From: Tillus elongatus
Taxonomy: Eukaryota > Arthropoda > Insecta > Coleoptera > Cleridae
Assembly: GCA_964006375.1 (NCBI GenBank)
Contig: OZ023262.1
Span: 198,362,778-198,426,777, forward strand
Length of the DNA: 64,000 nucleotides
Direction of reading: 5' to 3'
Below, piece after piece: positions 21,866 to 42,800 of this stretch (position 1 is the first letter of the stretch; every line of letters begins with the position of its first letter). The notes below the pieces were generated by a model, which ran no database searches, had not been told where the DNA came from, and saw nothing but the letters and a program-made list of their open reading frames with translations. A program made the translations under genes and the position numbers.

Positions 21866-22508
21866 TCAAATGCAAAGAGAAAACAAAGGGCTAGAAATTA
21901 CAGGTGTCGCACGGTTTAATGAAGTTTTGTTCATAATAGACCTTAATATAAAAATACTTTCTAATGAATCAAGCATAGTTTGATGTCTGACATTTTTGAC
22001 AAGTTTCAAATTTACTTTGTCAATGTGGTGGTTATTATCCCATATATGTTGTGCCACACATGATTTGTCCACCGTACCATATCGTAACTGTGCGAGATGT
22101 TCACGAAATCTGGTGGCTATGTTTCTCCTAGTTTGGCCCACGTATTTAAGATCACAATCTTTGCAACTAATCTCATAAATTCCGGACATTTCAGTGACTT
22201 TGTCTTTGTCTTTCGTATTACCCAACAAATTTTTTAAATTACTTGTCGAAAACGTCAAATGTAAATCGGATTTCTTAAAAATACTTTTCAAACCCTTTGT
22301 GATTCGTGGTTCATAAGGTAAACAAACAAATTTTTTTCTCGATTTTATCATTCTTAAATGTCGTACATTCAGATATCACCTTCTTTGTTTTGTGTTTGTT
22401 AACTAAGTTGTCTGTTAAACCATCCGAGTAACCGTTATCTCTCGCCACATTTTTTATGTATTTTAATTCTGTATTAAATCTATTTTTACTCAACGGAAAA
22501 TTGATCAA
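21866..22508 (-). pseudogene. Penelope GIY-YIG endonuclease domain, frameshifted
   Basis: The minus strand carries the C-terminal endonuclease of the Penelope polyprotein: SGIYEISCKDCDLKYVGQTR (about 22120-22180), then the catalytic Arg region TRFREHL, a His-containing CVAQHIWDNNHHID and a Glu in DSLESIF. The segment from 22311 to 22508 (LSKNRFNTELKYIKNVARD) is in another frame, so a small indel near 22330-22350 breaks this copy. The paralogous plus copy at 24370-25014 reads through the same place. The enzyme nicks target DNA for target-primed reverse transcription. Confidence 0.85.
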
Positions 22509-22525
22509 TCTATTTACTAAGAAAT

Positions 22526-24175
22526 TTAAACTAACCGTTTTTTGTGCAAACGTATGATGTGAGTCATTAGGAATATAGTAGCCGTTTCCTTCCTATAGAC
22601 ATCGAATTCAAGCGAGCCTTTATTTTTATTTTTAATAACTAGTACATCTAGGAACGAAAGTTTATTGTTGATTTCTATTTCGTGGGTAAATTTTATTGAA
22701 TCAAATTGACTATTTAGTTTTTCAGTAAATTCTTCTACCTTACATGTATTTGTGTCAAACACTGCAAAAATATCATCGACATAACGAAACCAAACTCTAG
22801 GGAAATACCCATTTTTATTTTTTAAATCCGTCTCAAATCTGCTCATAAACAAATCTGCAATAAAATGCGATAATGGATTGCCCATAGCTGTGCCTTCAGT
22901 TTGTTCAAAGAACTCATTGTTAAATTGGAAAATATTTTGTTTTATACAAAGGCTAGTTAGAGTTAAATATTCTTTGCAGACGTCTTGACTTATGTTGTTC
23001 AATTTTAATAATTCTTTCAAATACTCCAACGTTTGTTTTGTGGGTACACTAGGAAATAATGACGCCACGTCGAATGACATCAAAATCTCTCCTTCCAATA
23101 ATTTAACATCTTTAATTTTATCAATGAAATGAAGAGAATTTCGCACCGAACAACTTTTCTGTTTAATAGGTAGTCTTTTAAACTCGTTTGACAACCACTT
23201 TGCCAAATTATATGTTGGAGAATCTATAGCCGAAATGATAGGCCTGATTAATTTTCCCGGTTTATAGATTTTCGGGAGACCATATTTTTTGGGGACTTTG
23301 GGATTAGAAACTTGTAAACGTCTTCTTAAATCCTTTGTTATGAGATTTGGACATTTTTTAAAACTGTTTTTAACTTCGTTAATCATTCTTGGTAACGGAT
23401 TTTTATCTAATTTTCTATACGGCCCTGACTCTATTGCATTATTCACTCGCTCTTTATAATCACTTTTGTCCATTATCACAACTTTATTGCCTTTATCCGC
23501 CTTAATATAAAAACAATCATTTTCTCGCAATCGTTTAACTATTTTCATTTGATTATAATTTTTGTTTTTTGTAGGATTGTTTTCTTTTAGATTTTTAGAG
23601 ATTTTCGTTTTACATGCTTCACGAATAAAGTTTTTTGAAGAATCCGGTAATTTTTTAATTCCCGTTTCTATACTGGCAACGTCATCTAAAAGTGCTTATT
23701 TTTGTGACTGTAATCCGAATTTTAACCCTCTGTTTAAGAGGTCCATCTCATTTTTGTTAAACCACTGCGAAGAAAGATTTTCTACAAGGTCAATTTTCCG
23801 AGGAACTGATTTTTCAATTTTAATCTGATCGTTTACAAGTTTTTTTAGTTTTTTATTATGAATATTGATTTTCTTAATTAACTTAGCGTTTATGACTACA
23901 AACATGTTCCTCTGAAAATTGCACCATTCATCATACTTTACGTTACCTAAATTAAATGTTAACTTTTTAAACAAACTATAAGCTTGTATTTCTAATTCAC
24001 TACGTTTCGAGTAAAGATATTGCCTTTCTAAATCTAACCATTTTTGCTTAGCACACTTTAAAACTTTTTGACCAACTTTTGTGTTAGAAATTTTAACATT
24101 GAAATTAATGAAATTATGAAAAACCGACTTCTGTTTACATGATTTTAAAAATATACTATAGTTAATTTGATTCAA
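22526..24175 (-). pseudogene. Penelope reverse transcriptase, broken
   Basis: The minus strand encodes the N-terminal Penelope region (23696-24175) and, after a frame break near 23550-23700, a 340-codon RT (22526-23548). Visible RT blocks are KADKGNKVVIMDKSDYKERV, GLPKIYKPGKLIRPIISAID, LMSFDVASLFPSVP, EGTAMGNPLSHFIADLFMSR and the catalytic FRYVDDIFAVFD (YVDD near 22772-22783). These are diagnostic of Penelope RTs, which resemble telomerase RT rather than LINE RT. The RT catalytic core is complete, but the polyprotein is split into at least three frames. Confidence 0.85.
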
Positions 24176-24369
24176 TAAAATTTACCCACGAAATAGAAAT
24201 CAACAATAAGCTTTCGTTCCTAGATGTACTAGTTATTAAAAATAAAAATAAAGGGTCGCTTGAATTCGATGTCTATAGGAAGGAAACGGCTACTATTAGT
24301 TATATTCCTAATGACTCACATCATACGTTTGCACAAAAAACGGCTAGTTTAAATTTCTTAGTAAATAGA

Positions 24370-25014
24370 TTGATCAATTTTCCGTTGAGTAAAAATAGAT
24401 TTAATACAGAATTAAAATACATAAAAAATGTGGCGAGAGATAACGGTTACTCGCATGGTTTAACAGACAAATTAGTTAACAAACACAGAACAAAGAAGGT
24501 GATATCTGAATGTACGACATTTAAGAATGATAAAATCGAGAAAAAATTTGTTTGTTTACCTTATGAACCACGAATCACAAAGGGTTTGAAAAGTATTTTT
24601 AAGAAATCCGATTTACATTTGACGTTTTCGACGACAAGTAATTTAAAAAATTTGTTGGGTAATACGAAATACAAAGACAAAGTCACTGAAATGTCCGGAA
24701 TTTATGAGATTAGTTGCAAAGATTGTGATCTTAAATACGTGGGCCAAACTAGGAGAAACATAGCTACCAGATTTCGTGAACATCTCGCACAGTTACGATA
24801 TGGTACGGTGGACAAATCATGTGTGGCACAACATATATGGGATAATAACCACCACATTGACAAAGAAAATTTGAAACTTGTCAAAAATGTCAGACATCAA
24901 ACTATGCTTGATTCATTAGAAAGTATTTTTATATTAAGGTCTATTAAGAACAAAACTTCATTAAATTGCGCGGCACCTGTAATTTCTAGCCCTTTGTTTT
25001 CTTTTTGCACTTGA
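24370..25014 (+). CDS. Penelope GIY-YIG endonuclease domain, second copy (partial polyprotein)
   Basis: This 214-codon frame is the opposite-strand duplicate of the endonuclease end. It begins in the RT-endonuclease linker, with LSKNRFNTELKYIKNV, and keeps GIYEISCKDCDLKYVGQTRR, FREHL, HIWDNNHHID and LESIF without interruption. The ATG used here is internal to the normal polyprotein, because the RT is missing upstream; the copy starts at the inversion junction near 24170. Its intact frame shows that the indel in the minus copy is secondary. It is unlikely to be a functional gene alone. Confidence 0.8.
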   Translation: MINFPLSKNRFNTELKYIKNVARDNGYSHGLTDKLVNKHRTKKVISECTTFKNDKIEKKFVCLPYEPRITKGLKSIFKKSDLHLTFSTTSNLKNLLGNTKYKDKVTEMSGIYEISCKDCDLKYVGQTRRNIATRFREHLAQLRYGTVDKSCVAQHIWDNNHHIDKENLKLVKNVRHQTMLDSLESIFILRSIKNKTSLNCAAPVISSPLFSFCT

Positions 25015-27882: not shown

Positions 27883-27888
27883 AACGAC
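27883..27888. repeat. Polinton target-site duplication, left
   Basis: AACGAC, identical to 37953-37958. Six bases is the standard target duplication length for Maverick/Polinton integration. Confidence 0.9.
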
Positions 27889-27922
27889 AGTAGGTATTGC
27901 GACACTTGGGCTAGACAGGAAG

Positions 27923-28227
27923 TGACGTCACTGGCGCCGGCGCCTAGCCACGCCCTGGCGCCTGCCCTGGCGCCGGCGCCGGCGCCACGCCCTGGCGCCA
28001 GCCCGGCGCCGGCGCCTAGCCACGCCCTGGCGCCTGCCCCGGCGCCTGCCCTGGCGCCACGCCCTGGCGCCTGCCCTGGCGCCAGCCCCGGCGCCTAGCC
28101 ACGCCCCCGGCCCAGGCGCCAGCCCCGGCGCCTGTCCCGGCGCCCAGCCACGCCCTGGGCCAGACAGTCACATCCGTGTTATTCTGCATTCTAAGGTCAT
28201 TGACCTGTCTAGGAAACTGTGACGTCA
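27923..28227 (+). promoter_or_regulatory. GGCGCC-rich island between CRE palindromes, left TIR
   Basis: About 230 bp (27931-28160) is built of CCCTGGCGCC- and CACGCCCTGG-type units and is very GC-rich in an AT-rich window. TGACGTCA palindromes stand at 27923-27930 and 28220-28227. It mirrors 37725-37922. Possible roles are promoter, replication origin or packaging signal; none is proven. Confidence 0.6.
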
Positions 28228-28313
28228 CACGACTTGGGCCAGACAGTCACATGCAAACATTTCAAAGTGTCTAACCTATTACTTCAAATTATTATATTTT
28301 GAAAAAAACCATT

Positions 28314-28387
28314 TGGTGCAGGTGAGTTTCGAACCCGGGGCATTCAGATGGGAGGCAACGATGCTACCCGTTGAGCTAAGCAGACGC
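28314..28387 (-). ncRNA. tRNA-like Pol III promoter sequence, left TIR
   Basis: The minus strand shows an A-box-like TAGCTCAACGGG and a B box GGTTCGAAACTC, spaced as in a tRNA gene, with CACCA at the 3' edge. Acceptor and anticodon stems pair poorly, so a functional tRNA is doubtful. The right-TIR twin differs at one noticed base (TTAAC versus TCAAC). Confidence 0.5.
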
Positions 28388-28831
28388 TTATTAATTTATT
28401 GTTTTAGGTTGGTATATATATACGACTACAAACAAACCATACATGTAACATAATTAAAGTTTATTATTAGACAAATGGATGATTTACAAAATAATGTTTA
28501 ATATTAGAGGCGGAACCAAAACGGAGGAAAATGGCGGAAAATGGCGGAATGAAAGATGGAAGCCTGTGATACCTTAAGCTGACATTATAAAAATGGCGGC
28601 TTTCGTTGATAAAGATGGTGCAAGGATGGATGAAGACTTATTTAAAGATACGTCACTCCAACCTAGCCGACAAATGAGAGTGTAGACATAAGACATAATA
28701 ATTAATATGTTTAATATTAGACAGACTAGAACGTCACAATTGTTATATGGGTAGGTTCTAAAAATAACACACAGAGGTCGCTGGCAAAACAAAAGAAGGA
28801 AGTTCAGAAACAAAATAGACAACAGGTTCAA

Positions 28832-29340
28832 CCGTGAGATGTACGATGGAACCAATACATGCACGGTGTTAAGGAGGCCAAATCAAATTGGAATATACAA
28901 TAAAATGGCCACTTCCGGTCTAAACTTTAAATCGTTATATCTTTTGAAGGACAAGTGATAGAAATGAACTGACTTTAAAAAATGTATGTTTCATAACAAG
29001 GTCTACAAGAAACTGAGATAAAAAACTTTAAACCCTTATCGCGGAAGATCCGTGAGACGTACGCAGGAACCAATACATGCACGGTATTAAGGAGGCCAAA
29101 TCAAATTGGAATATACAATAAAATGGCCACTTCCGGTCTAAAACTTTAAATCCTTGTATCTTTTCAATGGAAAGTGATAGAAAGGAACCGACTTCAAAAA
29201 TGTATGTTTCGTAACAAGGTCTACAAGAAACTGAGATAAAAAACTTCAAACCCTTATCGCGGAAGATCCGTGAGATGTACGATAGAATCAATACATACAC
29301 GCTGTTCAGCAAAGCAAACTCTATAAGCATATTCAATAAA
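28832..29340 (+). repeat. 218 bp tandem repeats, ~2.3 copies
   Basis: CCGTGAGATGTACGATGGAA-type starts lie at 28832, 29050 and 29268, an exact 218 bp spacing. Each unit contains ACCAATACATGCACGGT and AAATGGCCACTTCCGG. The third unit is partial. The array lies inside the element just past the left TIR; no coding frame is shared among units. Confidence 0.9.
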
Positions 29341-29869
29341 AATGTTACTTCCGGTAGACACTTCCGGTATAGCTATTCTTAGAGCTACATACATGTGTGA
29401 CACATCAAAATAATCGTCTTGTTGAACAGAAGAAATATAATATTTAAGTAAGTTAGAACAAGCTGTATTAACACCTAAAACCAACACACACTCTCTTGTA
29501 CAGGCTGATTACCCTGCCATCCAATTGTTAGTAAGGTTATGTTTGTATTTGTTATTTGAATACAAACAGACATAATAAGAAGAGTGTACTTACATACAGC
29601 AAGACACGTCATCCTTGTTTCACGACTTAACACATACTGAACAAGTGTCTCTCTCTCTTGTATTGAGGAAACAAACTGATGTAAGAGAGAGGGGGTCTTA
29701 CAAAGGATAAACAACGTTTTTTACAGTTGTTAACCTTACAGAAAGGGGTTAATAAAAATGCAACAAAATAAAAATAAAACAACTGATTTACATACAATAA
29801 AAATTTATTAGGATTAATTAAGTTGTACATATTGATACATAAATGACATACATAAATGACATACTATTA
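29341..29869. other. Non-coding stretch left of the capsid gene
   Basis: No gene is recognised. AATAAA-type signals for the minus-strand capsid transcript appear near 29800-29812 (complement of TTTATT). Confidence 0.5.
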
Positions 29870-31075
29870 TTACATAATGGCTCTAACGATACCCGTTAGA
29901 GGTTTATATTCCATTACACTGTCATGAATAACCAAACAATAAACACGAGTATTTTTTGGGAAGTTGGCGTGACTCATGAACTCCACCTTAATGTCCACCG
30001 TTGAAGACTTGATTGACTCGTTCTGGTACTGACAGTCAATCACAAATAGAGCTCTGTCTTTAAACTCGTCATAATTCAAGATAGGCTCCGACATGTTTTT
30101 ATAACAGAAGTTTTTTTGAAAATCTGTATACATGTTATAGGCTTCTGCATATTTCGATTTCTCAAAATCCATATTCATAGATTCATAAGGGTAGCATTCT
30201 GAATTTAGAAACACTCTGAGGTCCAACATACCAATGTTATCGAAATAGTCTGACCTCTTCTTCACGTTATCCTTACGATCTGTTTGAAATGCTATAATCA
30301 CATATCGAGGTCTTTCCAAGTTGGTTGCAGTTTTAACAGCCCACACATCTCTGTTGATATCTCTGAGTGCTGGTAACTCATATATGTCCCATTTGCGGTA
30401 TGCGAGAAATATAGAGGTGTCTTTGGCTATTTTATCCATCAGTTCCAATTTCATTTTATCATTGGGAAATACATGTTTTACCTTTAAAAACATATTGGTT
30501 ACGGTAATTTTTGCTCGTGCCGTACCTGTGCTGTAATAGCCGTTGGAATCGTTTCGACTTCTTGTAAAGCGGAAAGTATGTTTGCCACAGAGAACTCCTT
30601 TGAAATGATGAAAGAAACTGAAGAGGAACCAGACAGGTATGAGCATGTGAAACTTGTTATCATTTAAGGTGATGTGCTCCGACGACACATTCAGACCGGC
30701 GTTGCTAAGAGATTGGGCTTCATTCTTACTGAACGATAGCAGACTTTTGATGATGGTTGTGGTGTATGGGTCTCGCACTCGTTCCACTTCCTTGTTATTT
30801 AACTCATAGGTCATTGATTCAAACAGAGCTGCTCCTCCATTATTTGACAGATAACAAGCACCAGTGGCATTTTGGATTGCTACAGGTTCCAGAGCACCTT
30901 CGATTATTAGAGCTGACTCGGCCAGACATACGAACGCATCTTGTTGGTTGATGGCTATTTCAATTTCATCGCTGTTACCAAACGATTTAGTTGGTGAATA
31001 GTAAGAACGCAGCTCTTCTCGATCGATGCCATCATCAAACACGGGTTCTTTGAATATTTCTAGTTTTGACGACAT
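29870..31075 (-). CDS. Polinton major capsid protein (double jelly-roll, hexon-like)
   Basis: The 401-residue product starts at MSSKLEIFKEPVFDD; the ATG at 31075 was preferred because the frame upstream lacks family features. It contains blocks typical of Maverick/adintovirus capsid proteins: a YSPTKSF start region, IPVWFLFSFFHHFKGVL in the middle, and DNIGMLDLRVFLNSECYPYE near residue 290. The product would form trimeric capsomers of an icosahedral shell. It is the downstream member of a minus-strand block with penton, protease and core genes, mirroring the virion cassette of adintoviruses. No stop or frameshift is present. Length is in the range expected for compact versions of this protein. 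Identification is by pattern recognition and would be settled by an HMM or structural prediction. Confidence 0.85.
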   Translation of the reverse strand: MSSKLEIFKEPVFDDGIDREELRSYYSPTKSFGNSDEIEIAINQQDAFVCLAESALIIEGALEPVAIQNATGACYLSNNGGAALFESMTYELNNKEVERVRDPYTTTIIKSLLSFSKNEAQSLSNAGLNVSSEHITLNDNKFHMLIPVWFLFSFFHHFKGVLCGKHTFRFTRSRNDSNGYYSTGTARAKITVTNMFLKVKHVFPNDKMKLELMDKIAKDTSIFLAYRKWDIYELPALRDINRDVWAVKTATNLERPRYVIIAFQTDRKDNVKKRSDYFDNIGMLDLRVFLNSECYPYESMNMDFEKSKYAEAYNMYTDFQKNFCYKNMSEPILNYDEFKDRALFVIDCQYQNESIKSSTVDIKVEFMSHANFPKNTRVYCLVIHDSVMEYKPLTGIVRAIM

Positions 31076-31197
31076 GATAACCCAGGCTTTGCAGGAACTC
31101 AATATTATCGGGACGAAGCGTACCCTTTGACGTGTCTGACTCAACTGAATTTGATGTGGTAGATGCACTTGATTTTATATCCTTGAAGACCAACATA

Positions 31198-31908
31198 CTA
31201 AGCAACTTTTATAAGTTTTAAGCGAACAGACACCTCTTCACCTTGAAAGTTGACAGGAACTGAATCTTGGTCGACGATGTCGATGCTTATATTGGAAATC
31301 TCTTGCTTGTTCACAGGCAAGTAAATTAAATTGTTAGGTTCTATGTCGATTGCGTAGCCAGGATCAACCATCGGAGCAAACTCATACAGCGTATGTGAGG
31401 GTTGTCCGTTATAATAGGAACCAGACACAATATTGGTTTCGATGCGAATCTGTCTAACATCCACTATATCAACAGGTAAATCAGATTCATAAAAGGTGTC
31501 CGGCTGAAGAACTTGTTTTGAAAAGCCCAACATTCGCCCAATCGAACCATCAAATTCAAAACTGACATTTGTATAACACTTTAGTCTACATTTGATGGTG
31601 TTCGGATTAGGTCTCAGAATCAGAGCCTGTTGCTTTTGTTCGTGTGTTGCTGTAGCACCAACAAGTTCATTTTGAAGTAACTCTTCCAAGTGTGTTATTT
31701 CATAAGCACCGGTGGGTATCGTGATGGTTCGCCAACCGGTTCCTTCTTTTACATGAAATTTGTTTTTACCTTCATAGATGTTGGGTATGTTGTTGTAGGT
31801 GTGAAAGCCTATCAAGGCAACAGCATAATTACCATCCAAAACAATTGGTGGATGGTAGTCTGACGACAGATGGGAGCTGCGGTCTTTCAACACAAAGGTG
31901 TGCGCCAT
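31198..31908 (-). CDS. Polinton minor capsid/penton-like protein (single jelly roll)
   Basis: 236 residues starting MAHTFVLKDRSSHLSSDYHP. The N-terminal segment with LDGNYAVALIGFHTYNNIPN and the following GAYEITHLEELLQ match the penton/minor capsid protein of Polintons, in which beta-rich sequence predominates. It would occupy capsid vertices. It lies 122 bp upstream of the capsid gene on the same strand and 16 bp downstream of the protease stop, a spacing that suggests a shared late transcription unit. The frame is intact. The family assignment is firm from position and sequence; the penton role is by homology. Confidence 0.8.
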   Translation of the reverse strand: MAHTFVLKDRSSHLSSDYHPPIVLDGNYAVALIGFHTYNNIPNIYEGKNKFHVKEGTGWRTITIPTGAYEITHLEELLQNELVGATATHEQKQQALILRPNPNTIKCRLKCYTNVSFEFDGSIGRMLGFSKQVLQPDTFYESDLPVDIVDVRQIRIETNIVSGSYYNGQPSHTLYEFAPMVDPGYAIDIEPNNLIYLPVNKQEISNISIDIVDQDSVPVNFQGEEVSVRLKLIKVA

Positions 31909-31924
31909 GACTGATACACACAGG

Positions 31925-32377
31925 CTACTGTTTAAGGCTTTTATTTAAAAATTTTAAACATAAGTGACCACAATTATAAGTATTATATTTCTGATACACA
32001 TCATGATTGTACATTAAAGTAGAGTTTTTAAGGTAACGCTGCAGCTCAACTGGTGGTTTCAAGTTTCCATATGAGTCAAAGTACACGGCTGTGTCACCAC
32101 GTTTCTTAACTGCAACCCAATGACTGCCAGGTTCCTTGTTTGTTTGCAAATTCATGATAAGTGATTCATTCTTGCGTGGCCCATTCGATGGCAAAGTATC
32201 TCGCATGTATACACCTCTAAAATATGGAATTTTCATTTTACCAGCAAATTTCACAAGGTCTTCATTTGTTAGAGGTCTTGCTGGTAAACATCTTACTCGT
32301 TTTTTGGTTTCTGCAGATACAACCCATAACCGGAGCGCTGTTTCTTGAGATACATGCCTGTGCCCAGTCTCTTGCAT
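31925..32377 (-). CDS. Adenain-type cysteine protease (capsid maturation)
   Basis: 150 residues. The conserved start of the family, LTNEDLVKFAGKMKIPYFRG, lies at residues 36-55, followed by VYMRDTLP. The catalytic residues fit adenain: His86 in GSHWVAV, Asp101 in YFDSYG, Gln129 for the oxyanion hole and Cys136 in YNCGHLCLKF. The enzyme would process capsid and core precursors in the assembling virion. The ATG at 32377 lies inside the 3' end of the neighbouring core-protein gene in another frame, giving an 85-nt overlap. The next Met (residue 48) would delete the conserved N-terminus, so the overlapping start is preferred. Shorter than adenovirus protease (~200), but all key residues remain. 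Confidence 0.9.
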   Translation of the reverse strand: MQETGHRHVSQETALRLWVVSAETKKRVRCLPARPLTNEDLVKFAGKMKIPYFRGVYMRDTLPSNGPRKNESLIMNLQTNKEPGSHWVAVKKRGDTAVYFDSYGNLKPPVELQRYLKNSTLMYNHDVYQKYNTYNCGHLCLKFLNKSLKQ

Positions 32378-32805
32378 TTTGGCTTAAATTTCAAGCCACT
32401 CCCTCTCCTACCCATCGCGATGGCTTCCATTGTTTTGTTGTGCCGTTCTTCCTCCTCTAGTTTCTGTTTCGCAGACTTGGCATCGTTCACGGCTTTGGCA
32501 ATACCTGCAGCACCACCACCCAGAGCTCCTAGTGCTGACAGCCCACCAAATATCAGAGGCAACAGCGGAAGGAAGCCTCCACTTTTAGGTATTGGAATAA
32601 CTCGAGGTTTCTGCACATTCTTACGTCCACCAATGTTTCTAACGATTGTATGAGCTATATCAAATACGACGTTCGCTGTTGGAATAAGATTTCTATCTTT
32701 TATAACTTCCTCAATCAGACTTAGTATGTTTTTAAAGGGAACCTTCTTCTTTGGCTTCGAGTTGATTACATAAAACCCCTCATTAAGTTTTCTGTTAACT
32801 TTCAT
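32293..32805 (-). CDS. PX/pVI-like virion core protein with hydrophobic glycine-rich segment
   Basis: 170 residues from the ATG at 32805 (MKVNRKLNEGFYVINSKPKK); the longer frame upstream lacks an ATG. The middle holds GFLPLLPLIFGGLSALGALG followed by a Gly/Ala-rich run, then a basic C-terminus with GSGLKFKPKCKRLG. This layout resembles the pX/pVI-type proteins of adenoviruses and adintoviruses, which bind DNA and disrupt membranes during entry. It is first in the minus-strand virion block, next to a divergent promoter, and overlaps the protease gene by 85 nt. The exact homology is less certain than for its neighbours. Confidence 0.65.
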   Translation of the reverse strand: MKVNRKLNEGFYVINSKPKKKVPFKNILSLIEEVIKDRNLIPTANVVFDIAHTIVRNIGGRKNVQKPRVIPIPKSGGFLPLLPLIFGGLSALGALGGGAAGIAKAVNDAKSAKQKLEEEERHNKTMEAIAMGRRGSGLKFKPKCKRLGTGMYLKKQRSGYGLYLQKPKNE

Positions 32806-32963
32806 GGTGTTTGTAACGCCCCGCAACGTTTCAGCAAAACCTGTATCTGTCTTTGTTAATAACAGCCCTCACTCTGTGACACCAACATGCATACTGACTG
32901 GGTGTCTCACTTGCATTCATATATATACACACCCAAATAAAATATAGTTTAGTTTAAGTTAAG
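32806..32963. promoter_or_regulatory. Divergent promoter region between virion block and ATPase
   Basis: 158 bp separates two outward-facing genes. ATATATAC near 32920-32928 is a TATA-like element about 40 bp before the ATPase ATG. The minus-strand side has no obvious TATA. Confidence 0.45.
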
Positions 32964-33659
32964 ATGCGTACCAGCAAACACGCTTCTGCCTTACCCATTA
33001 CAAATATAGACGATGTTGTTACGGACACAGCTCAACAACAACTGAGGCATGGTCCTCTCTTTCCAAACACCGTTCGCTGTATCATATGTGGTCCCAGTGG
33101 GTGTGGTAAAACTAATGTCATGCTGAGTTTGTTGTTTGAAGCAAACGGTTTAAAATTTGATAACGTGTATGTGTATTCAAAGTCTCTGTATCAACCGAAA
33201 TACAAGATGTTAAAGGAGGTGATGAATGCCACAAAAGGTGTTGGTTACTATCCTTATCGAGAAAACGATGAAATATTAGATCCGGAAGATGCCAAGGACA
33301 ACTCTGTGTTTATATTTGATGATGTAGCTTGTGACAAACAAGATAAAATAAGAGCATACTTCAGTATGGGCAGACATAAGAATATTGATTCATTCTATCT
33401 CTGTCAAACATATACACGAATACCCAAACATCTGGTACGTGACAACACCAATGTTATTGTGTTATTCAAGCAAGATGAAACCAATTTAAAACATGTGTAC
33501 GACGATCATGTGACCACCGATATGGACTTTAAACAATTTAAAACTATCTGCCACCAATGCTGGAAAGATAATAAGTATGGTGTGTTGGTGATTGTGAAGG
33601 AAAACGATGTACACAAAGGTCGATATAGAAAAGGATTCGATAGATATATATTATTCTAA
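32964..33659 (+). CDS. A32/FtsK-HerA-type genome-packaging ATPase
   Basis: 231 residues starting MRTSKHASALPITNIDDVVT. Walker A is GPSGCGKT at residues 43-50, preceded by the beta strand VRCIIC; Walker B is VFIFDD at 115-120. A sensor-like YLCQTYTRIPKHL region follows near 146-158. This arrangement is the packaging ATPase of Polintons and related viruses, which pumps the DNA genome into preformed capsids. The gene faces away from the capsid cassette and leads a plus-strand block with the DUF8207-like, fibre-like and chromodomain genes. The frame is intact and of normal length for the family (~200-250). Confidence 0.9.
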   Translation: MRTSKHASALPITNIDDVVTDTAQQQLRHGPLFPNTVRCIICGPSGCGKTNVMLSLLFEANGLKFDNVYVYSKSLYQPKYKMLKEVMNATKGVGYYPYRENDEILDPEDAKDNSVFIFDDVACDKQDKIRAYFSMGRHKNIDSFYLCQTYTRIPKHLVRDNTNVIVLFKQDETNLKHVYDDHVTTDMDFKQFKTICHQCWKDNKYGVLVIVKENDVHKGRYRKGFDRYILF

Positions 33660-33689
33660 CAAACGATGATAGACAGGACAGTCAGCTGT

Positions 33690-33848
33690 CTAACACAGAT
33701 GTCATACAAGTGTCTAATACAGCTGTCATACAGCTGTCATACAGCTGTCTAACACAGCTGTCTAACACAGCTGTCTAACACAGCTGTCTAACACAGCTGT
33801 CTAACACAGCTGTCTAACACAGCTGTCTAACACAGCTGTCTAACAAGA
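33690..33848 (+). repeat. 13 bp tandem array with CAGCTG palindromes
   Basis: The unit ACAGCTGTCTAAC is repeated about eight times head to tail. Diverged units (CAGCTGTCATA, AGATGTCATAC) lie on the 5' side. Each unit carries an E-box palindrome. It sits directly upstream of the next gene and could act as a promoter or binding array. Confidence 0.85.
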
Positions 33849-33884
33849 CAGCCAGACATCGTGATAAATAAGAAGGCATGTACC

Positions 33885-35036
33885 ATGAAGGAGTCAGTAT
33901 ATGTTAAACCACCACACAACCTGTATCGCTCAAACAAATTATTAGACCAGCTGGTAATACCGACCAGTTGTAGCACAATGGAAGTGTTGGGTAAGGAAGA
34001 GCGAAAAGTTAAGAAAAGGATTTTACAACTTGCTGACAATATTCGAAAAAAACATTTAATGTTTAAACTTAACAGAGCCGAGAATGATGATGCTCTGCAA
34101 CGTTTATATAAACCACTTGTTGAGCCCCTAAGTGAAATATCTAAAAACACAGCAGCACAGCAGCAGCAGCAGCCCCAGCAACAACCAAAGGCTGAACAAA
34201 TCAAAGAAGAAGTGGTACCAGAAACGAAACCCCAAGTACAGTTCCTTAAAGACCATGAAGTTTTTGAAGCTGAACCTAGGGAAGAGGCTGAGGAGACAAG
34301 TTCCGATGAGGATATCCCAACATTTGAAGAGCTTGAGGCAGATCTACAAACTGTCACATCCAACCCTGCATATCAAGAATTTTTGGAGCAATATCCTGAA
34401 CGAGTTCGATATTATGTAGACAAGTATTTTACTGAACCACCAAGGCTCGCTACCATTGATCAAACGTATGGTGTTCGCTACGCTAAAGATACCGGTAGCT
34501 GGAGTCTTGGCAATAAACACTTGGATTTTACTGATAATGACATTCGACTAGGTCAACGGAGATATCCGCAAACACAAGGTCTGCTAGAATTGATATTTAT
34601 GAAAACACCTAGAGGGTATACCTATGACGATCTTCAACACTATAGAGATATTCTAGAAGCAACTAGTGTGCATAAAATGAACTATGATCCTAACGCACGA
34701 ACCAAGGGTTGTTCCTCTGAAAAGTACCTGACTCTAATAAAACCGGTGATAAATCCACGAGGTCGTAGATCCTCAACTCCTCAAGGTTTTGGTTACGACA
34801 CACATCATAACGCAGAACAAAAAACTGAACCTAGAGCTCAGAATGTAAGCAGCAACACTAACAACTATATGCTACAAAATAACAAACAAATAGAATATGT
34901 CTATTGGGATGACATAAATGAGCTGGTTGATAGACTTAGACTTTTAGTAGCTTCCCAGGCTGCTGGTAATAATGCTCATAACAATGAAATTCAGTCAATC
35001 ATTGAAGAACTGAAGGAGGTTGGTGTTATCGCCTAG
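33885..35036 (+). CDS. DUF8207-like Polinton protein (possible IIIa-like)
   Basis: 383 residues from the ATG at 33885 (MKESVYVKPPHNLYRSNKLL). The N-terminal third is helical with basic clusters (GKEERKVKKRILQLADNIRK). A glutamine-rich stretch (AAQQQQQPQQQPKAEQ) and an acidic segment (EEAEETSSDEDIPTFEELEA) follow. The C-terminal half holds a conserved block, GVRYAKDTGSWSLGNKHLDF then LLELIFMKTPRGYTYDDLQH, that I associate with the DUF8207 domain frequent in insect Polinton relatives. Function is unknown. Its position between ATPase and fibre-like genes and its length suggest a structural role comparable with adenovirus IIIa, but that is inference. The frame is intact. Confidence 0.6.
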   Translation: MKESVYVKPPHNLYRSNKLLDQLVIPTSCSTMEVLGKEERKVKKRILQLADNIRKKHLMFKLNRAENDDALQRLYKPLVEPLSEISKNTAAQQQQQPQQQPKAEQIKEEVVPETKPQVQFLKDHEVFEAEPREEAEETSSDEDIPTFEELEADLQTVTSNPAYQEFLEQYPERVRYYVDKYFTEPPRLATIDQTYGVRYAKDTGSWSLGNKHLDFTDNDIRLGQRRYPQTQGLLELIFMKTPRGYTYDDLQHYRDILEATSVHKMNYDPNARTKGCSSEKYLTLIKPVINPRGRRSSTPQGFGYDTHHNAEQKTEPRAQNVSSNTNNYMLQNNKQIEYVYWDDINELVDRLRLLVASQAAGNNAHNNEIQSIIEELKEVGVIA

Positions 35037-35085
35037 TATACCTACATATATCAAAGATATACCTACCTTAGTGCTTAGTATAAAA

Positions 35086-35535
35086 ATGTCTATCGATAAG
35101 TTCGGACGTTCCCAATCCAATAAAGGTTCTAAGTTTAAAATTATTGAAAGAGAGATTTTCCCAAGAACTACTAGTGGTGATTTTGATTTGCAAAGCCATA
35201 GATTGTGTAACATAGCTGATCCAGTCGATGCAACAGATGGTGTAAATAAAAAATTTGTTGATGTATGGATAGACGACTATCAGAAGAACAAAGATGAGGT
35301 AACACAAAGAATCATTGCCATACTACTTGAAGCTGTACACAAACCTGAGTTGGAAGATTTAAAAAACGAATTTGAAAATAAATTGAAAATTTTAGCTAAG
35401 AACATAACTGCTCAAGTTTTAAAAGATGTTGATGTATTAAAGAATAATAAGCTAAAGAATAAGCTGGGAGAAATAGACAGCAAACTAAAAGATTTACATG
35501 ATAAGTGGATACTTTTAAATCCAACATCGCCATGA
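35086..35535 (+). CDS. Small fibre-like coiled-coil protein
   Basis: 149 residues from the ATG at 35086 (MSIDKFGRSQSNKG). The segment FDLQSHRLCNIADPVDATDG followed by VNKKFVD resembles the repeat used in trimeric tail-fibre and fibre-shaft proteins (hydrophobic core, then N-x-x-D-P, then D-A-x-x-K-x-Y/F-V-D). The C-terminal two thirds are charged heptad-like helix (LEDLKNEFENKLKILAKN; KLGEIDSKLKDLHDKW). It could be a short host-attachment fibre or its shaft. The gene starts 49 bp after the DUF8207-like stop, and its TGA overlaps the ATG of the chromodomain gene. Confidence is moderate because the similarity is to a short motif. Confidence 0.5.
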   Translation: MSIDKFGRSQSNKGSKFKIIEREIFPRTTSGDFDLQSHRLCNIADPVDATDGVNKKFVDVWIDDYQKNKDEVTQRIIAILLEAVHKPELEDLKNEFENKLKILAKNITAQVLKDVDVLKNNKLKNKLGEIDSKLKDLHDKWILLNPTSP

Positions 35536-35657
35536 AACAAACAGACATCTATCTGGTTGAACGCATCTTGAGGAAGAAAGGCAAGCAGCTCTATGTAAAA
35601 TGGCTGGGTTTTGATAAATCTCAGAATTCTTGGATAAATTCAGATGATGTTAAATAA
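35532..35657 (+). CDS. 41-residue stand-alone chromodomain protein
   Basis: The frame starts MKQTDIYLVERILRKKGKQL and continues YVKWLGFDKSQNSWINSDDV before the stop. This is almost nothing but a chromodomain: Y-x-V-E-x-I-L, then the basic loop, then Y-x-V-K-W-x-G-F, then N-S-W. Chromodomains bind methylated histone tails, and occur at the C-terminus of some Polinton and Ty3/Gypsy integrases, where they steer integration. Here no integrase precedes it. Its ATG shares the ATGA overlap with the stop of the fibre-like gene, which suggests reinitiation or a frameshift fusion. AATAAA at about 35689-35694 follows. It may be a tethering factor, or the last remnant of a deleted integrase. Confidence 0.75.
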   Translation: MKQTDIYLVERILRKKGKQLYVKWLGFDKSQNSWINSDDVK

Positions 35658-35685
35658 GCTTATATATTTAATGTATTAATGTACT

Positions 35686-35710
35686 TAGAATAAAATAAAA
35701 GTCTTTATTA
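35686..35710. terminator. Bidirectional polyadenylation region
   Basis: AATAAA at about 35689-35694 serves the plus-strand block. TTTATT at about 35703-35708 provides AATAAA for the convergent KilA-N gene on the minus strand. Confidence 0.6.
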
Positions 35711-35766
35711 AAATAATGTTATTTTATTTTTTCATCTGGTTACATACAATTAAGCTAAGTGAACAA

Positions 35767-36705
35767 TTACAATTTATATCGTAAATCAATAATATCCTGA
35801 ATAAACTTCTCCTGAGGTACATCTGCTATCTGTAGATCGTTTCTCTTCGCCTTGAGGTATTCGACTTCGGTCTTTATTCTGTTAAAGAGATTTACAGAAT
35901 TTGGATCATACAACATGTTTAAAACTACTTCGGAATCAGGGTGTTTATTTTTAAAGTTCTTGACAGCTCTTTTAAAACTTTTCTTCTGAGTCCTTACAGC
36001 ATGATATGGATAGGTAGTATCCTTCTCATTTCTTGAAAGCAAACCAAAAACACAAAGTTTTCCAGGGTTGCTTGGTTTTGGAGATATATCTTCTAAATGT
36101 TCTGTGATTTTAGCATTTGTTTCTCGCATACGCTGCACTTCATCATCTATCTCCATTAATTTCACTTCAATTTCTTTGAGGTTATCCTTGTATTTTTGAT
36201 TAAATTCACTTACGAAAAAATCAAAAATAATTTGGTTGCACTTTTCATAGAAACTATTGGATATCCAACAAGCCAAATTTAATATCAAATCTTTACAGAC
36301 ATATGTACCAGATATCAAGTTGTTTTCAGTCTGTGTTCCACCAAAGTCCACCAAGTATGTAGCAGTTGTAGGTGTTAGTTGAGATGTTGCTTCCAGCACA
36401 TCTAGGGGGCCGGAATTCCGGCCCCCTAGATGTGACTCTAAGTGGACATCTTCGGTTGAAATATTAAGGTAATCGGTATTCTGGCTACCTAAATGTTTCT
36501 TCGCCTGACCGTTGTAATAGGTAATCAACTCTTTAGTTTTCTTATTTTCCAACCAATGTCTGAATCTTTTCTCACCATCTTTACACAGCTTAGTCGCATT
36601 AAAATAACCAGTGTTTTTATCAATAATTAATTGAAAGTCTGCAAATAAACCATACCAGAAGTTGTATTTAATTTGCTGGTAGCACACATCATTTAATGTA
36701 GCCAT
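35767..36705 (-). CDS. KilA-N domain protein with DUF3627-like C-terminus
   Basis: 312 residues from the ATG at 36705 (MATLNDVCYQQIKYNFWYGL). The KilA-N domain covers about 15-150: IDKNTGYFNATKLCKDGEKR, FRHWLENKKTKELI and, after an insert, DLILNLACWISNSFYEKCNQ. A coiled coil follows (about 175-210, KEIEVKLMEIDDEVQRMRET). The C-terminal part with LCVFGLLSRNEKD, YPYHAVRTQKKSFKRAVKNF and DPNSVNLFNRIKTEVEYLKA resembles DUF3627, which often accompanies KilA-N in insect dsDNA viruses. KilA-N proteins bind DNA; the role in this element is unknown. It converges on the plus-strand block. A 38 bp perfect palindrome lies within the coding sequence at residues ~91-103. Confidence 0.85.
   Translation of the reverse strand: MATLNDVCYQQIKYNFWYGLFADFQLIIDKNTGYFNATKLCKDGEKRFRHWLENKKTKELITYYNGQAKKHLGSQNTDYLNISTEDVHLESHLGGRNSGPLDVLEATSQLTPTTATYLVDFGGTQTENNLISGTYVCKDLILNLACWISNSFYEKCNQIIFDFFVSEFNQKYKDNLKEIEVKLMEIDDEVQRMRETNAKITEHLEDISPKPSNPGKLCVFGLLSRNEKDTTYPYHAVRTQKKSFKRAVKNFKNKHPDSEVVLNMLYDPNSVNLFNRIKTEVEYLKAKRNDLQIADVPQEKFIQDIIDLRYKL
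36397..36434. repeat. Perfect 38 bp palindrome inside the KilA-N gene
   Basis: The sequence is its own reverse complement, centred on GGCCGGAATTCCGGCC (36408-36423) and flanked by CACATCTAGG and its complement. It is GC-rich in an AT-rich gene and keeps the reading frame open. Confidence 0.95.
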
Positions 36706-36819
36706 TTTAAACACACTACTGAGCACTTGGATACGTTAGAGTTAACTGAAGCACGTCTTACCTCTACGATAACTAAATTTTGAATGAGTTTAACAGTGTG
36801 TAGTGAACAATTTACATGG

Positions 36820-37135
36820 ATGATGTCATCCTTTCGGTTTGTACTAGACAAGCTCAAACACGAGTAATGGGGGTGATTGAACAGATATAACACAAGATAA
36901 CATTCACCAAAGTCATCAACTGACATGTTATTTACCCTAAGCGGGCCTCTCTCTTGCGTATATTAAACAGATACACAGACAAGTTCAAACACAAATAATG
37001 GGGTGATGTCATTCAACGGAAATTACACTAGATAACAACCGTACAGACAAAACTCAAACAGGTTTGTGGAACAGGTTTGTGGATGATGTCATACTTCTAA
37101 CGGCTGTATTCTAGACAAGCTCAAACACGAATACC
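36820..37135 (+). repeat. Subterminal direct repeats, ~68 bp spacing
   Basis: AGACAAGCTCAAACACGA-type motifs start at 36846, 36977, 37045 and 37113 (spacing 131, 68, 68). GATGATGTCAT precedes several of them. The array lies between the KilA-N gene and the right TIR. It looks iteron-like. Confidence 0.75.
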
Positions 37136-37487
37136 ATTTACCCATCAAGGGGCCCCCTACAGTATGTTTCTGAACTTCCTTCTTTTGTTTGCTAACGACC
37201 TCTGTGTGTTATTTTTAAATAAGTCTTCAACCATCTTTATCAGCGAAAGGCACCATCTTTAAGAAAGAAAGCCGCCATTTTTTATAATGTCAGCTTAAGG
37301 TATCACAGGCTTCCATCTTTCATTCCGCCATTTTGGTTCTTCCGTTTTGGTTCCGCCTCTAATATTAAACATTATTTTGTAAATCATCCATTTGTCTAAT
37401 AATAAACTTTAATTCTATTACATGTATGGTTTGTTTGTAATTAAAAGTCGTATATATATATACCAACCTAAAACAATAAATTAACAA

Positions 37488-37561
37488 GCGTCTGCTTAGC
37501 TTAACGGGTAGCATCGTTGCCTCCCATCTGAATGCCCCGGGTTCGAAACTCACCTGCACCA
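37488..37561 (+). ncRNA. tRNA-like Pol III promoter sequence, right TIR
   Basis: The plus strand shows TAGCTTAACGGGTAGC (A-box-like, with a 3 bp D-stem), CTCCCAT (anticodon-loop-like), GGTTCGAAACTC (B box) and terminal CACCA. The stems pair incompletely. It may drive a short Pol III transcript towards the terminus. Confidence 0.5.
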
Positions 37562-37635
37562 AATGGTTTTTTTCAAAATATAATAATTTGAAGTAATAGG
37601 TTAGACACTTATGTGATTGTCTGGCACAAGTCATG

Positions 37636-37922
37636 TGACGTCACTGTCTGGCCAAAGACAGGTCAATGACCTTAGAATGTTTACATAACAAGACTAAATG
37701 TGACTGTCTGGCCCAGGGCGTGGCTGGGCGCCGGGACAGGCGCCGGGGCTTGGCGCCGGGGGCCGGGGCGTGGCTAGGCGCCGGGGCCGGGGCAGGCGCC
37801 GGGCAGGCGCCAGTGCAGGCGCCGGCGCCAGGGCGTGGCTAGGCGCCAGGGCGTGGCGCCAGGGCGTGGCGCCGGCGCCAGGGCGTGGCGCCGGCGCCGT
37901 GACGTCACTTCCTGTGACGTCA
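37636..37922 (-). promoter_or_regulatory. GGCGCC-rich island with CRE palindromes, right TIR
   Basis: TGACGTCA occurs at 37636-37643, 37900-37907 and 37915-37922. The GGCGCC-rich block between about 37725 and 37900 is made of GGGCGTGGC and CAGGCGCCGG-type units. It mirrors the left TIR but differs in unit number. Confidence 0.6.
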
Positions 37923-37952
37923 CTGTCTGCTCAAAGTGCCGCATTACCTACT

Positions 37953-37958
37953 AACGAC
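37953..37958. repeat. Polinton target-site duplication, right
   Basis: AACGAC, identical to 27883-27888. Confidence 0.9.
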
Positions 37959-39866: not shown

Positions 39867-42800
39867 TCAACTGGGAACTAGTAGTAGTAGTAGTAGTAGC
39901 AGTGGTGTGGAGGCTAACGCCAAGCAAGTAGGCCACAATGGGCCCTTTTTGCCAACCCCAGCAACCATACTATACTCTTCCTCGGTTCCGTCTCCAAACC
40001 GTCTCGACCTCGAAATGAAGGCCGTGACGGTCTTCAATTGGACGGTACTTACCTGATTCCTCTGCAGACTCCTCGAACCGAACAATTCTGCTCGAAGACT
40101 CCCAAAAGCCCCGCGTTCACACAAATAATAGTAAGACGTTTCTTCATCCTCGCCGCATTCCTGGCAAATGGGATCCCTCTCTACACCTATTAGTGAGGTA
40201 GGTGTCTTCTAAGGGGGCAGTGGCCTGTCAGCACCCCAAGGATGCGGCGAAGCGTAGGTCGACTTCTACCGAGTAGCCAGACAGCTTTATCTCTGTCCGG
40301 CCCCTCCACGAAGTCCCTCGCCTGCCTACAGCCACCAACTGACCCCCAGTGCATCTCCATGGCTTCCTCCCTCCACCTGTCTAAGGCGACAGAGACCATC
40401 TTCCTACTTATGCCTATCGCAGGCTTCGGGCCACGGAACGGTCGCCGGGAACCAAGCCTTGCGAGATTATTCGCTTCCTCATTCCCCGCTACGCCACAGT
40501 GTCCCGGAAGCCACACCAGTTGCACCTCCTTTGTCCTGGCTAGTCCTTTGAGGGCGTCAGCGCACTTCTGAATCAGTGTTGACCTGATTCTAGCCGCGCA
40601 GACTGCCCGGAGGACCGCCTGGCTATCCGAGCAAATGTATACACCTTTCTCGGGGCTTCTCCTCACATCCTCTCTATTGGCCACAGACAGGATAGCGTAC
40701 ACCTCTGTTTCGAATGCCGTGGTATATGCGCCCAGAGCATAACTCTCGCGCACCCCAGGCCCTCGATGTATATTCCTGCCCTGGAGGATTGTTGATCTTC
40801 CAGCCGCGATCCGTCGATAAAACAGACCAAGCTTGCGGGCTGGAATGCAACCTCAGTTTCCTCCACTGATCCCTACTGGGGACCTAATATCGACCTCGGC
40901 ATTCCGCACCTTGATGGCGGAAATCGGAATTTCCTTTTCCACCTCCTTGGCGACTCTTGCATGCCCTATTACTGCTCCCTCTCCGCACCAGTTTTCAGAG
41001 TCTCGTATTCTAAGACGCGACGCCATAGCCTCCCTTCTGATACAGATGGGAAGCGGTGGCAACATCATCGTCCTCATAGCGCCTGTGATTCCCAGGATTG
41101 CCAGCCTTAGGAGTTTGGCCAGCTTCCTAGTAGTAGTTTAGTTCACACCACACCACCAGACCAACGCCCCATAGAGGATTCTCGGCCTGACGATCGCAAT
41201 GTAAATTCAGTGAAGGATCCCAGGAAGAAGTCCCCAGGTCCTCCCTATCACTCGCCGCAGCTGCCAGAGGGTCGCTACTCCCTTCGTCACTACTCGTTCT
41301 ATTTGCGACCCCCATGTTAGTTTGGAGTCCAGGACCCCCCAGATATTTGACCTCCCGCACTAAAGCTAAAGGTTTTCCAAACATCACGGGCGCCCTGAAC
41401 CCCTCCACGTTTTCCTTCTTGGTGAATAGGATCATATCCGTCTTTGCCGGGTTTACGGAGATTTCCAGCTCACCACACCACCTTTCAATTATGCTACAGG
41501 CAGCTTGCATGCACTCACAGACGACGCCGAGGAATTTGCCGGTAACTAGGACCAGCCCATTATCAGCGTACGCCTGGGCGTAGAAGCCATTCTCGGAGCG
41601 CCGCTCCAAGAGGCCGTCCATGACGGGACACCATAGATGAGGCGAGAGGCAGCTGCCCTGAGGACAGCCGCCCGTCACGCCAACATCCAGCCACCGGCCC
41701 CTCAAGGTCAGCGAGACTCTCCTGTCCTCCAGCATGCTCGCCACCCAGCTTATCAGGGACCCCGACGATCCCCTGTCCTGTAGGGCGGCACAGACCGTAT
41801 CCGTCGTTGCCCTATCAAAGGCCCCCTCCACATCGAAGAACACTGCTAATGTGTTCTCCCCGTAGTGTAGGGCCCTTTCCACCTTTCGCGTCACAGCGTG
41901 GAGCGCCGTCTCCGTCGATTTCCCTCGCTGGTACGCGTGCTGGCTTTTATGGAAGGGGTGATCCCTGAGGATCCTTCCCAACATAAACCTATCTACTATT
42001 ATTTCCAATGCCCAGGTCGACAGCCCCCGTGACGGCTCCACCGCCCGTAAGGTGAACTTCGGCGAGATGGCACAATGTCTCCCCGCCGGTGTTGGTCCAA
42101 TTCCCGTCCGGTTTCCTTAAGGATCCTATCGTACTGCCTGTCTCCTGTTCGAGTACCCTTACCAGCCTGGCTGCGTCCGGCAGGGAATTGAATTTCCTGC
42201 AGTACACGCGCCAACCAGCTCGTTTACTCCGTTGTAATTTCTTCTTAAACTCCCTTCTGGCAGTTCTAAACTCGTCCCAGGCCACCTCACCCGATTATCG
42301 GACGGCTCGGTTTAAGGCCATCCGAGTCCGTCCGCGTAGTGCGGTGTGATCCCTGTTCCACCATCTAACTTTGATGGACGGCTCTCCCCTAAGTGACGAC
42401 GCGCCTTCGTAGGTTGCATTATTTTACCTTCTAGGGCCTCGATCTCGCTATCTAATGCCTCTATAGAGAGTCCTCTCCCCTCTGGGCTTCTTGGCGATCC
42501 ACCGAGGCCTATTCCGTAGGCATCCCAGTCGGTCTTCCTTGGGTTTTTCCTGGGGGGAGGACTCTCACGGTCCACATCCAATTCAAAGCTTATACGATGA
42601 TCAGACATTGATATGTGTTCCGTCACCCTCCAGCTAGATATATCCTCTGTTATTCCTCTGCTCGCTAACGTGACGTCGATCACCTCCTGCCGGTTACGAT
42701 TGACAAACTTCGGAGCTGTACCTATTTAATATCTCCAGGTTCGTTGTACCCAAATACTCTGGTAGAGCCTCACCGCGTGGGTTGGTATTTGTGCTGCTCC

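What the first reader, a model, noticed from the sequence alone, without database searches (positions are those of the whole stretch)
27889..37952. 10 kb Polinton that keeps the virion genes but has no polymerase B or integrase
Seen: exact 6 bp duplication AACGAC, 5'-AG termini, long TIRs, and uninterrupted genes for MCP, penton-like protein, protease, core protein and packaging ATPase. Known: autonomous Mavericks/Polintons carry PolB and a retroviral-type integrase in 15-20 kb. Inference: this is a compact, possibly parasitic or satellite-like lineage that can make or package particles but borrows replication and integration, or a recent internal deletion derivative.
Basis: partly seen in the sequence, partly recalled or inferred. 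Interest (0 to 1): 0.88.

Follow-up and report, generated by a model that had tools for sequence, protein, structure and literature searches.

The report
Polinton split into capsid-only elements
A virus-like jumping gene in what is probably an insect genome carries the shell-making genes but no copying enzyme or working integrase, has spread to over a hundred nearly identical sites, and shares its end sequences with separate elements that carry the copying enzyme but no shell genes.

Summary
27889-37952 is a discrete insertion with AACGAC duplicated on both sides, long TIRs and open virion genes; two repeat copies in the window show the empty site. No PolB or integrase core was found, but an overlooked 41-codon chromodomain ORF (35532-35657) sits where insect Mavericks appear to end their integrase.

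It is a lineage, not a local deletion. In the window's own 1.72 Gb assembly, all 103 scored matches have an identical, open MCP (a lower bound, ranked best-first). Of 10 copies sampled, all keep the same integrase-less slot and 7 have their own exact 6-bp duplications. None of 77 listed PolB loci lies within 29 kb of the 103.

Those PolB loci mostly have long open frames (67 of 77 at least 1000 aa). Of 8 read, three share this element's TIRs and 218-bp repeats, and a fourth shares the repeats and a similar end. One complete PolB element (17,940 bp, duplication TATACA) has PolB and a matrixin gene but no capsid genes. None of the 8 has a capsid gene or packaging ATPase within the 20 kb read.

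Best reading: a split Polinton, with capsid and polymerase modules on separate elements that share ends, mobilised in trans. The integrase source was not found; particle formation is untested.

The parts
27883..27888 (.). left target-site duplication AACGAC
27889..28650 (+). left terminal inverted repeat (5'-AGTAGGTA; GC-rich minisatellite about 27931-28155, best-conserved blocks 28265-28593)
28757..29363 (.). 218-bp tandem repeats, copy number variable between copies; best alignments to PolB elements 90-94%
29870..31075 (-). major capsid protein, 401 aa, double jelly-roll
   Evidence: Pfam PF21738 E 9e-76; model pLDDT 90; PDB iridovirus, PBCV-1, Sputnik and mavirus MCPs
31198..31908 (-). penton-like/minor capsid protein, 236 aa (assignment inferred)
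   Evidence: position; no match above a cut-off; model unusable
31925..32377 (-). cysteine protease, 150 aa, with HW and NCGHLC motifs
   Evidence: Pfam PF02902 E 1.4e-4; motifs
32293..32826 (-). small core-like ORF, 177 aa from a TTG (function inferred)
32964..33659 (+). FtsK/A32-type packaging ATPase, 231 aa, Walker A and B present
   Evidence: PF04665 E 6e-9; 2413 homologues; 81 of 81 conserved columns
33683..33845 (.). 13-bp minisatellite
33885..35036 (+). 383-aa ORF of unknown function, in the place that ORF2 seems to take in insect Mavericks
   Evidence: order inferred from PMC5803895
35086..35535 (+). 149-aa ORF, weak phage tail-fibre-like matches below cut-off, no homologue found
35532..35657 (+). 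stand-alone 41-aa chromodomain ORF, overlapping the previous stop codon (ATGA); the integrase slot
   Evidence: Pfam Chromo E 2.3e-6; identical in 10 of 10 copies read; 150 of 150 scored matches at the same score, in a 50-aa frame
35767..36705 (-). KilA-N + DUF3627 protein, 312 aa
   Evidence: PF04383 E 9e-24, PF12299 E 4e-20
37165..37952 (-). right terminal inverted repeat
37953..37958 (.). right target-site duplication AACGAC

Best explanation
This is the capsid component of a split Polinton. It encodes major capsid protein, protease and packaging ATPase, probably a penton, plus a KilA-N protein and a stand-alone chromodomain, but no recognisable replicase or catalytic integrase. SHOWN: many near-identical copies, own TSDs, a conserved PolB/INT-less layout, and PolB elements in the same genome that share its ends and lack these genes where read. 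INFERRED: protein-primed PolB made from those elements copies any linear DNA with the AGTAGGT-type TIR; an integrase from a source not found inserts it with a 6-bp duplication, perhaps guided by the chromodomain; the capsid proteins package one or both element types.
For: 103 of 103 scored own-genome matches have an identical, open MCP. Of 10 sampled copies, 7 have exact, different TSDs and all 10 the same chromodomain ORF; in 9 of the 10 the slot piece matches without gaps over 798-850 bp with 0-1 mismatch, and one has an indel downstream of the chromodomain. 75 of 90 MCP places on C1-C5 have a listed chromodomain ORF 4-8 kb away. The nearest of 77 listed PolB loci to any of the 103 MCP places is 29.6 kb off. 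67 of those 77 have open frames of at least 1000 aa (counted). In three PolB loci TIRs match at 78-81% over 756-820 bp (right TIR) and the best repeat alignments at 90-94%; a fourth has the repeats and a similar end. One PolB element end equals this right end over 50 of 50 bases. A complete 17,940-bp PolB element with TSD TATACA shows PolB and matrixin genes and no capsid gene. 0 of 240 MCP/ATPase queries hit any of the 17 PolB pieces, against 240 of 240 for the window. 0 of 77 PolB loci have a listed ATPase within 100 kb.
Against: No integrase was found on either component, so a third source is required and unseen. The genome lists are partial (103 of 7278, 77 of 809, 148 of 2182 candidates), so a complete Polinton elsewhere is not excluded; the ATPase-PolB distance test alone is weak for that reason. 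The MCP list is ranked by score, so identity is partly selection of the best. 15 of 90 MCP places on C1-C5 have no listed chromodomain at the expected distance (that list is partial too). Of the eight PolB loci, four share only traces of the TIR or none. One PolB-type TIR has an ATPase 5.2 kb away. Trans-replication, packaging and particles were not observed.
Confidence: 0.62

Rival explanations
1. Ordinary non-autonomous Polinton: one internally deleted copy was amplified by complete, autonomous relatives, and its capsid genes are passengers with no function.
For: Non-autonomous elements moved in trans are a standard phenomenon (passage of PMC6431247). With median divergence of 0.21% between 9 copies, open ORFs are expected without selection. 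The chromodomain looks like a leftover of a deleted integrase. The middle 3 kb of two shorter TIR-flanked elements hold fragments of KilA-N and ATPase, one also of PolB (L077, L078).
Against: Complete helpers were not seen: none of 8 PolB loci read carries a detectable MCP or ATPase. The virion genes are kept while replication and integration genes are gone, and the ATPase keeps 81 of 81 conserved columns.
Confidence: 0.22
2. Satellite of a complete autonomous Polinton or an exogenous adintovirus that supplies PolB and integrase, in the manner of a virophage.
For: No PolB or integrase detected; copies with their own TSDs.
Against: It has its own capsid and packaging genes, and the PolB loci that share its ends are endogenous elements without detectable capsid genes rather than a complete virus.
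Confidence: 0.1
3. Autonomous element with an unrecognised replicase or recombinase in the 383-aa, 149-aa or KilA-N protein.
For: Two ORFs have no annotated relative.
Against: Polinton-type ends and 6-bp TSD match elements that do carry PolB; no enzymatic family match above cut-off in Pfam or NCBIfam.
Confidence: 0.05
4. In-situ deletion of one full-length Polinton at this site.
For: The integrase-type chromodomain remains.
Against: The same layout occurs at other sites with different TSDs.
Confidence: 0.01

Closest known systems
Insect Mavericks/Polintons (Sf Maverick 1 and 2, PMC5803895: passages, section 15, and part 1 of 2 of section 11)
   Same: ATPase (228 aa there, 231 here), then an ORF2, then the integrase slot, the integrase there having a chromodomain on its C-terminus; this order is inferred from the ORF numbering and table, the figure was not seen. 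An unassigned 404-aa ORF7 there has about the length of the MCP here (sequence not compared).
   Different: Sf Mavericks have a 1162-aa PolB and a 310-aa integrase; here only the chromodomain is left and PolB was found on other elements. The paper says Sf Mavericks lack a homologue of the usual PY capsid protein.
Vertebrate Mavericks (PMC8097293: section 7 and passages)
   Same: 6-bp TSDs, long TIRs, AGT-type end motif, intronless genes.
   Different: 134 intact elements there encode eight conserved ORFs (seven in Xenopus tropicalis), pPolB and integrase in the described layout, at 12.7-24.6 kb.
Adintoviruses and other meldviruses (PMC11071296: section 16 and passages)
   Same: Adenovirus-like virion gene set; integrase with C-terminal chromodomain in adintoviruses. 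That paper already reports adenovirus-class virion proteins in genomes lacking recognisable PolB and integrase.
   Different: One such example in its legends has a primase-helicase and a tyrosine recombinase; no partner element with the same ends is described in what was read.
Bidnaviruses / Vesanto virus (passages of PMC8363768 and PMC11071308)
   Same: PolB of Polinton origin and, in Vesanto virus, possibly up to twelve genome segments: a precedent for dividing genes.
   Different: ssDNA viruses related to parvoviruses, not TIR-flanked integrated elements.
Polintons without capsid genes (PMC4028283: section 4 and passages)
   Same: Module loss: nine elements there lack MCP, protease and ATPase together.
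   Different: Here the opposite module is lost, and both halves occur in one genome with shared ends.

Membership tests
Polinton/Maverick (autonomous) | protein-primed DNA polymerase B | tested here: not met
   no PF03175 match in eight main ORFs and 30 further ORFs; no listed PolB within 29 kb of any of 103 copies (partial lists)
Polinton/Maverick (autonomous) | retroviral-type (rve) integrase | tested here: not met
   no rve match; only a stand-alone chromodomain, same in 10 of 10 copies
Polinton/Maverick (autonomous) | 6-bp target-site duplication and AG-type termini with long TIRs | tested here: met
   exact TSD in 7 of 10 further copies
Polinton/Maverick (autonomous) | DJR major capsid protein, protease, packaging ATPase | tested here: met
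Polinton/Maverick (autonomous) | size 15-20 kb | tested here: not met
   10,064 bp here; 8,326-11,334 bp for 7 copies with exact TSDs
Non-autonomous Polinton lineage | Polinton ends, no replicase/integrase, many copies with own TSDs | tested here: met
Adintovirus (as defined in PMC11071296) | PolB with OTU-like domain plus recognisable hexon sequence | tested here: not met
   no PolB found; sequence comparison with adintovirus hexons not done
Virophage / satellite | dependence on a helper for replication | tested here: inconclusive
   no replicase detected here, PolB elements with similar ends present; dependence itself not testable

The most novel reading that the evidence does not exclude
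A two- or multi-component Polinton: virion genes and the replicase live on separate, co-resident mobile elements with the same TIRs and repeats, so that neither is a complete virus and both move and perhaps get packaged together, like a segmented virus kept as scattered insertions; the chromodomain survives alone as an in-trans targeting factor.
Probability: 0.5. Interest if true: 0.9.

Novelty: new variant of a known kind. Interest (0 to 1): 0.8.

Why it matters
Polintons are thought to stand at the root of many eukaryotic DNA viruses, and module loss is known in both directions. A genome in which the capsid half and the polymerase half persist as separate, high-copy elements with shared ends would show how segmentation, satellites and virophage-like dependence can arise from one ancestor. 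It gives a natural system to test whether Polinton particles form and what they package.

Tried and rejected
Rejected: local deletion; coincidental TSD; a complete Polinton with overlooked PolB at this site. TIR dating of this copy: its arms differ at 5 of 317 sites, while the coding-rich part of 9 copies differs by a median of 0.21%, so arm differences probably predate insertion. The nonsense-mutation test gave only P = 0.09 and is not used. miRNA-like Rfam matches fall on the 13-bp minisatellite, below gathering scores. A tRNA-like stretch in the TIR is not called by ARAGORN or Rfam. Led nowhere: seven viral-contig scans (six by the search for related loci, one by pattern) and two genome-contig scans found no relative; the 149-aa ORF had no homologue; the penton model was unusable. 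Integrase in the PolB element: no ORF of integrase size besides PolB and matrixin, and no rve in the 9 smaller L065 ORFs scanned by Pfam of the 25 listed at 55 aa or more; an intron-split or decayed gene could be missed. The middle 3 kb of two shorter TIR-flanked elements held KilA-N and ATPase fragments, one also a PolB fragment, no integrase ORF. No paper search was made for split or bipartite Polintons; the ten searches predate that result, so I do not claim that it is absent from print.
Full report
1. The element. The window holds a 10,064-bp insertion at 27889-37952. AACGAC stands at 27883-27888 and again at 37953-37958, and both ends begin AGTAGGTA. It sits in a dispersed repeat. Joining the two flanks gives a sequence that aligns across the junction to two other copies of that repeat in the window, at 49162-48713 (79%, with 4 extra bases at the junction) and 62216-62013 (76%); the latter has a single AACGAC. 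So the unit inserted precisely and duplicated 6 bp. The TIRs run to about 700-760 bp, with a GC-rich minisatellite near the tips and well-conserved inner blocks; the gap-free blocks differ at 5 of 317 sites.

2. Genes. Leftward: MCP (PF21738, E 9e-76), a 236-aa protein in the penton position, a cysteine protease (PF02902, E 1.4e-4) and a 177-aa ORF. Rightward: packaging ATPase (PF04665, E 6e-9), a 383-aa ORF, a 149-aa ORF and a 41-aa chromodomain ORF. Leftward again near the right end: a KilA-N/DUF3627 protein. The MCP model (25 sequences, pLDDT 90) matches iridovirus, PBCV-1, Sputnik and mavirus capsid proteins in the PDB. The ATPase keeps 81 of 81 columns that are at least 90% identical in 17 chosen relatives; the MCP keeps 39 of 46 such columns against 24, towards the low end of the leave-one-out range. 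'Penton' and 'core' are inferred.

3. What is missing, and what was overlooked. No PolB or rve domain was found in the eight main ORFs or in 30 further stop-to-stop ORFs of 35 aa or more. The 14 others of the list, all within the TIRs, and ORFs lying mostly over the main genes were not scanned. But 35532-35657 encodes a chromodomain (E 2.3e-6 for the 50-aa frame), starting inside the stop codon of the ORF before it (ATGA). In Spodoptera Mavericks the integrase has a chromodomain on its C-terminus and seems to follow ATPase and ORF2 (PMC5803895, sections 15 and 11 part 1; order inferred from ORF numbers, figure not seen); adintovirus integrases end likewise (PMC11071296, section 16). Here ATPase and a 383-aa ORF are followed by the 149-aa ORF and the bare chromodomain. 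I infer that an integrase stood there and lost its catalytic part.

4. One of many copies. The window lies in G000, a 1.72 Gb assembly of 30 contigs. The MCP search scored 103 of 7278 first-look candidates; all 103 are identical over 404 residues, open and without stops. This is a lower bound, and the ranking favours the best. Ten of them, all in the window's orientation, were read in pieces. Seven have exact 6-bp TSDs, all different (TGCGTC, ACTGAA, TATATG, TACTCT, CCGGGT, TATATA, TATAAC; some are AT-rich and so weaker), one matches at 5 of 6, and two were not resolved (left end of one not found, right end of one rearranged). Lengths of the seven are 8,326-11,334 bp; part of the variation lies in the 218-bp repeats and minisatellites, and the shortest copy has lost most of the left non-coding part. 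All ten have the same chromodomain ORF. In nine the slot piece matches the window without gaps over 798-850 bp with 0-1 mismatch; the tenth has an indel downstream of the chromodomain. The chromodomain search scored 150 of 2072 candidates; all have the same score and a 50-aa frame, so none of these sits in an integrase; lower-scoring relatives were not scored. 75 of 90 MCP places on C1-C5 have a listed chromodomain 4-8 kb away; 73 of 150 chromodomain places have no listed MCP within 9 kb. Eight copies (chosen as best MCP hits) plus the window differ by a median of 0.21% (36 pairs, maximum 0.73%) over 2,865 bp; 13 of the 29 variable sites cluster at 32017-32057, mostly in one copy. The spread was therefore recent and happened in the PolB/INT-less state.

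5. The polymerase is on other elements. PF03175 gave 77 scored places of 809 candidates; by my count 67 of 77 have open frames of 1000 aa or more. None lies within 29 kb of the 103 MCP places. I read 20 kb around 8 PolB loci. Three (C1; C3 near 63.19 Mb; C4) share this element's right TIR at 78-81% over 756-820 bp and the 218-bp repeats at 90-94% in the best alignments; the C6 locus shares the repeats and a similar end; the other four share only traces or nothing; the gene-bearing part of the capsid element has no DNA match in any. By protein, only a weak KilA-N match was found in two. The C3 element's end is identical to the right end here over 50 of 50 bases. One complete PolB element, C1:141838713-141856652 (17,940 bp), is bounded by TATACA on both sides and has both TIRs with repeats. 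Its ORFs of 120 aa or more are PolB (one stop in this copy) with an antisense frame over it, a 137-aa ORF resembling a PolB C-terminal part (recalled motif), a 121-aa ORF resembling the PolB N-terminus, and a 560-aa protein. Pfam identified PolB and matrixin/hemopexin on the close copy at C3. No integrase was found, within the limits told in Tried and rejected.

6. Are the two modules really apart? tblastn with 240 MCP and ATPase proteins from the searches hit none of the 17 PolB pieces, and 240 of 240 hit the window. The Pox_A32 family search listed 148 ATPase places; 0 of 77 PolB places have one within 100 kb. As both lists are partial, the second result alone is weak; with the eight loci read directly, the picture is consistent. 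One PolB-type TIR, of 40 listed, has an ATPase 5.2 kb away, and 7 have a listed PolB within 20 kb, so capsid-type elements with PolB-type ends may exist. Two shorter TIR-flanked elements, read over their middle 3 kb, are mosaics of KilA-N and ATPase fragments, one with a PolB fragment, which suggests that the two classes recombine.

7. Mechanism. Shown: amplification as a PolB/INT-less unit, own TSDs, and partner elements with similar ends. From family knowledge: Maverick ends carry short repeats thought to allow jumping-back in protein-primed replication (PMC8097293, passages); the end here, AGTAGG, is one base from the vertebrate (AGT)2 motif. Inferred: PolB from the partner copies both classes; an integrase from an unseen source inserts them; the capsid class may package both. 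The chromodomain may help targeting, or be a relic: in copies this young its conservation does not prove function.

8. Known or new. Loss of modules is known: Polintons without capsid genes (PMC4028283, section 4) and virion-gene genomes without recognisable PolB/integrase (PMC11071296, section 16). What I have not met in the sections and passages read is the two halves in one genome, high-copy, with shared ends; no search was aimed at that. I file it as a non-autonomous Polinton lineage and new variant of a known kind, not as an autonomous Polinton, because PolB and integrase were tested and not met.

Noticed in passing
window 36397-36434: A perfect 38-bp palindrome without spacer lies inside the KilA-N coding sequence; 97% matches to it occur in two chimeric elements (L077, L078).
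   Followed up: partly
G000 C6:128643486-128659336 (L068, L069): A 15.85-kb TIR-ended element with a PolB gene in each of two inverted arms, its flanking 6 bases matching at 4 of 6; one search lists several other inverted PolB pairs about 8-16 kb apart (e.g. on C1, C2, C4, C5, C8, C9).
   Followed up: partly
L060, L065, L072: PolB elements carry a 560-aa gene, matrixin plus hemopexin by Pfam in L060, apparently a captured host-type metalloproteinase.
   Followed up: partly
L060, L065, L066-L069, L072: A separate 130-137 aa ORF follows PolB downstream and resembles the missing PolB C-terminal part (motif recalled; no Pfam match for the one scanned), suggesting an intron or split gene.
   Followed up: no
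window 28350-28420 and 37453-37530: tRNA-like stretch with a B-box-like motif in both TIRs, followed by a T run; not called by ARAGORN or Rfam.
   Followed up: partly
L077 (C3:98001000-98004000), L078 (C3:122976500-122979500): Shorter elements between PolB-type TIRs whose middle is made of KilA-N, ATPase-tail and, in L077, PolB fragments.
   Followed up: partly
L070/L071, L074/L075: Two further PolB loci without this TIR, each with a weak KilA-like match.
   Followed up: no
window 4360-9333; 21866-25014; 40190-42041; 50688-53761: Gypsy-like 1657-aa polyprotein ORF (by eye), an RT ORF and GIY-YIG ORFs suggesting a Penelope-like element, and two LINE-like RT regions.
   Followed up: no
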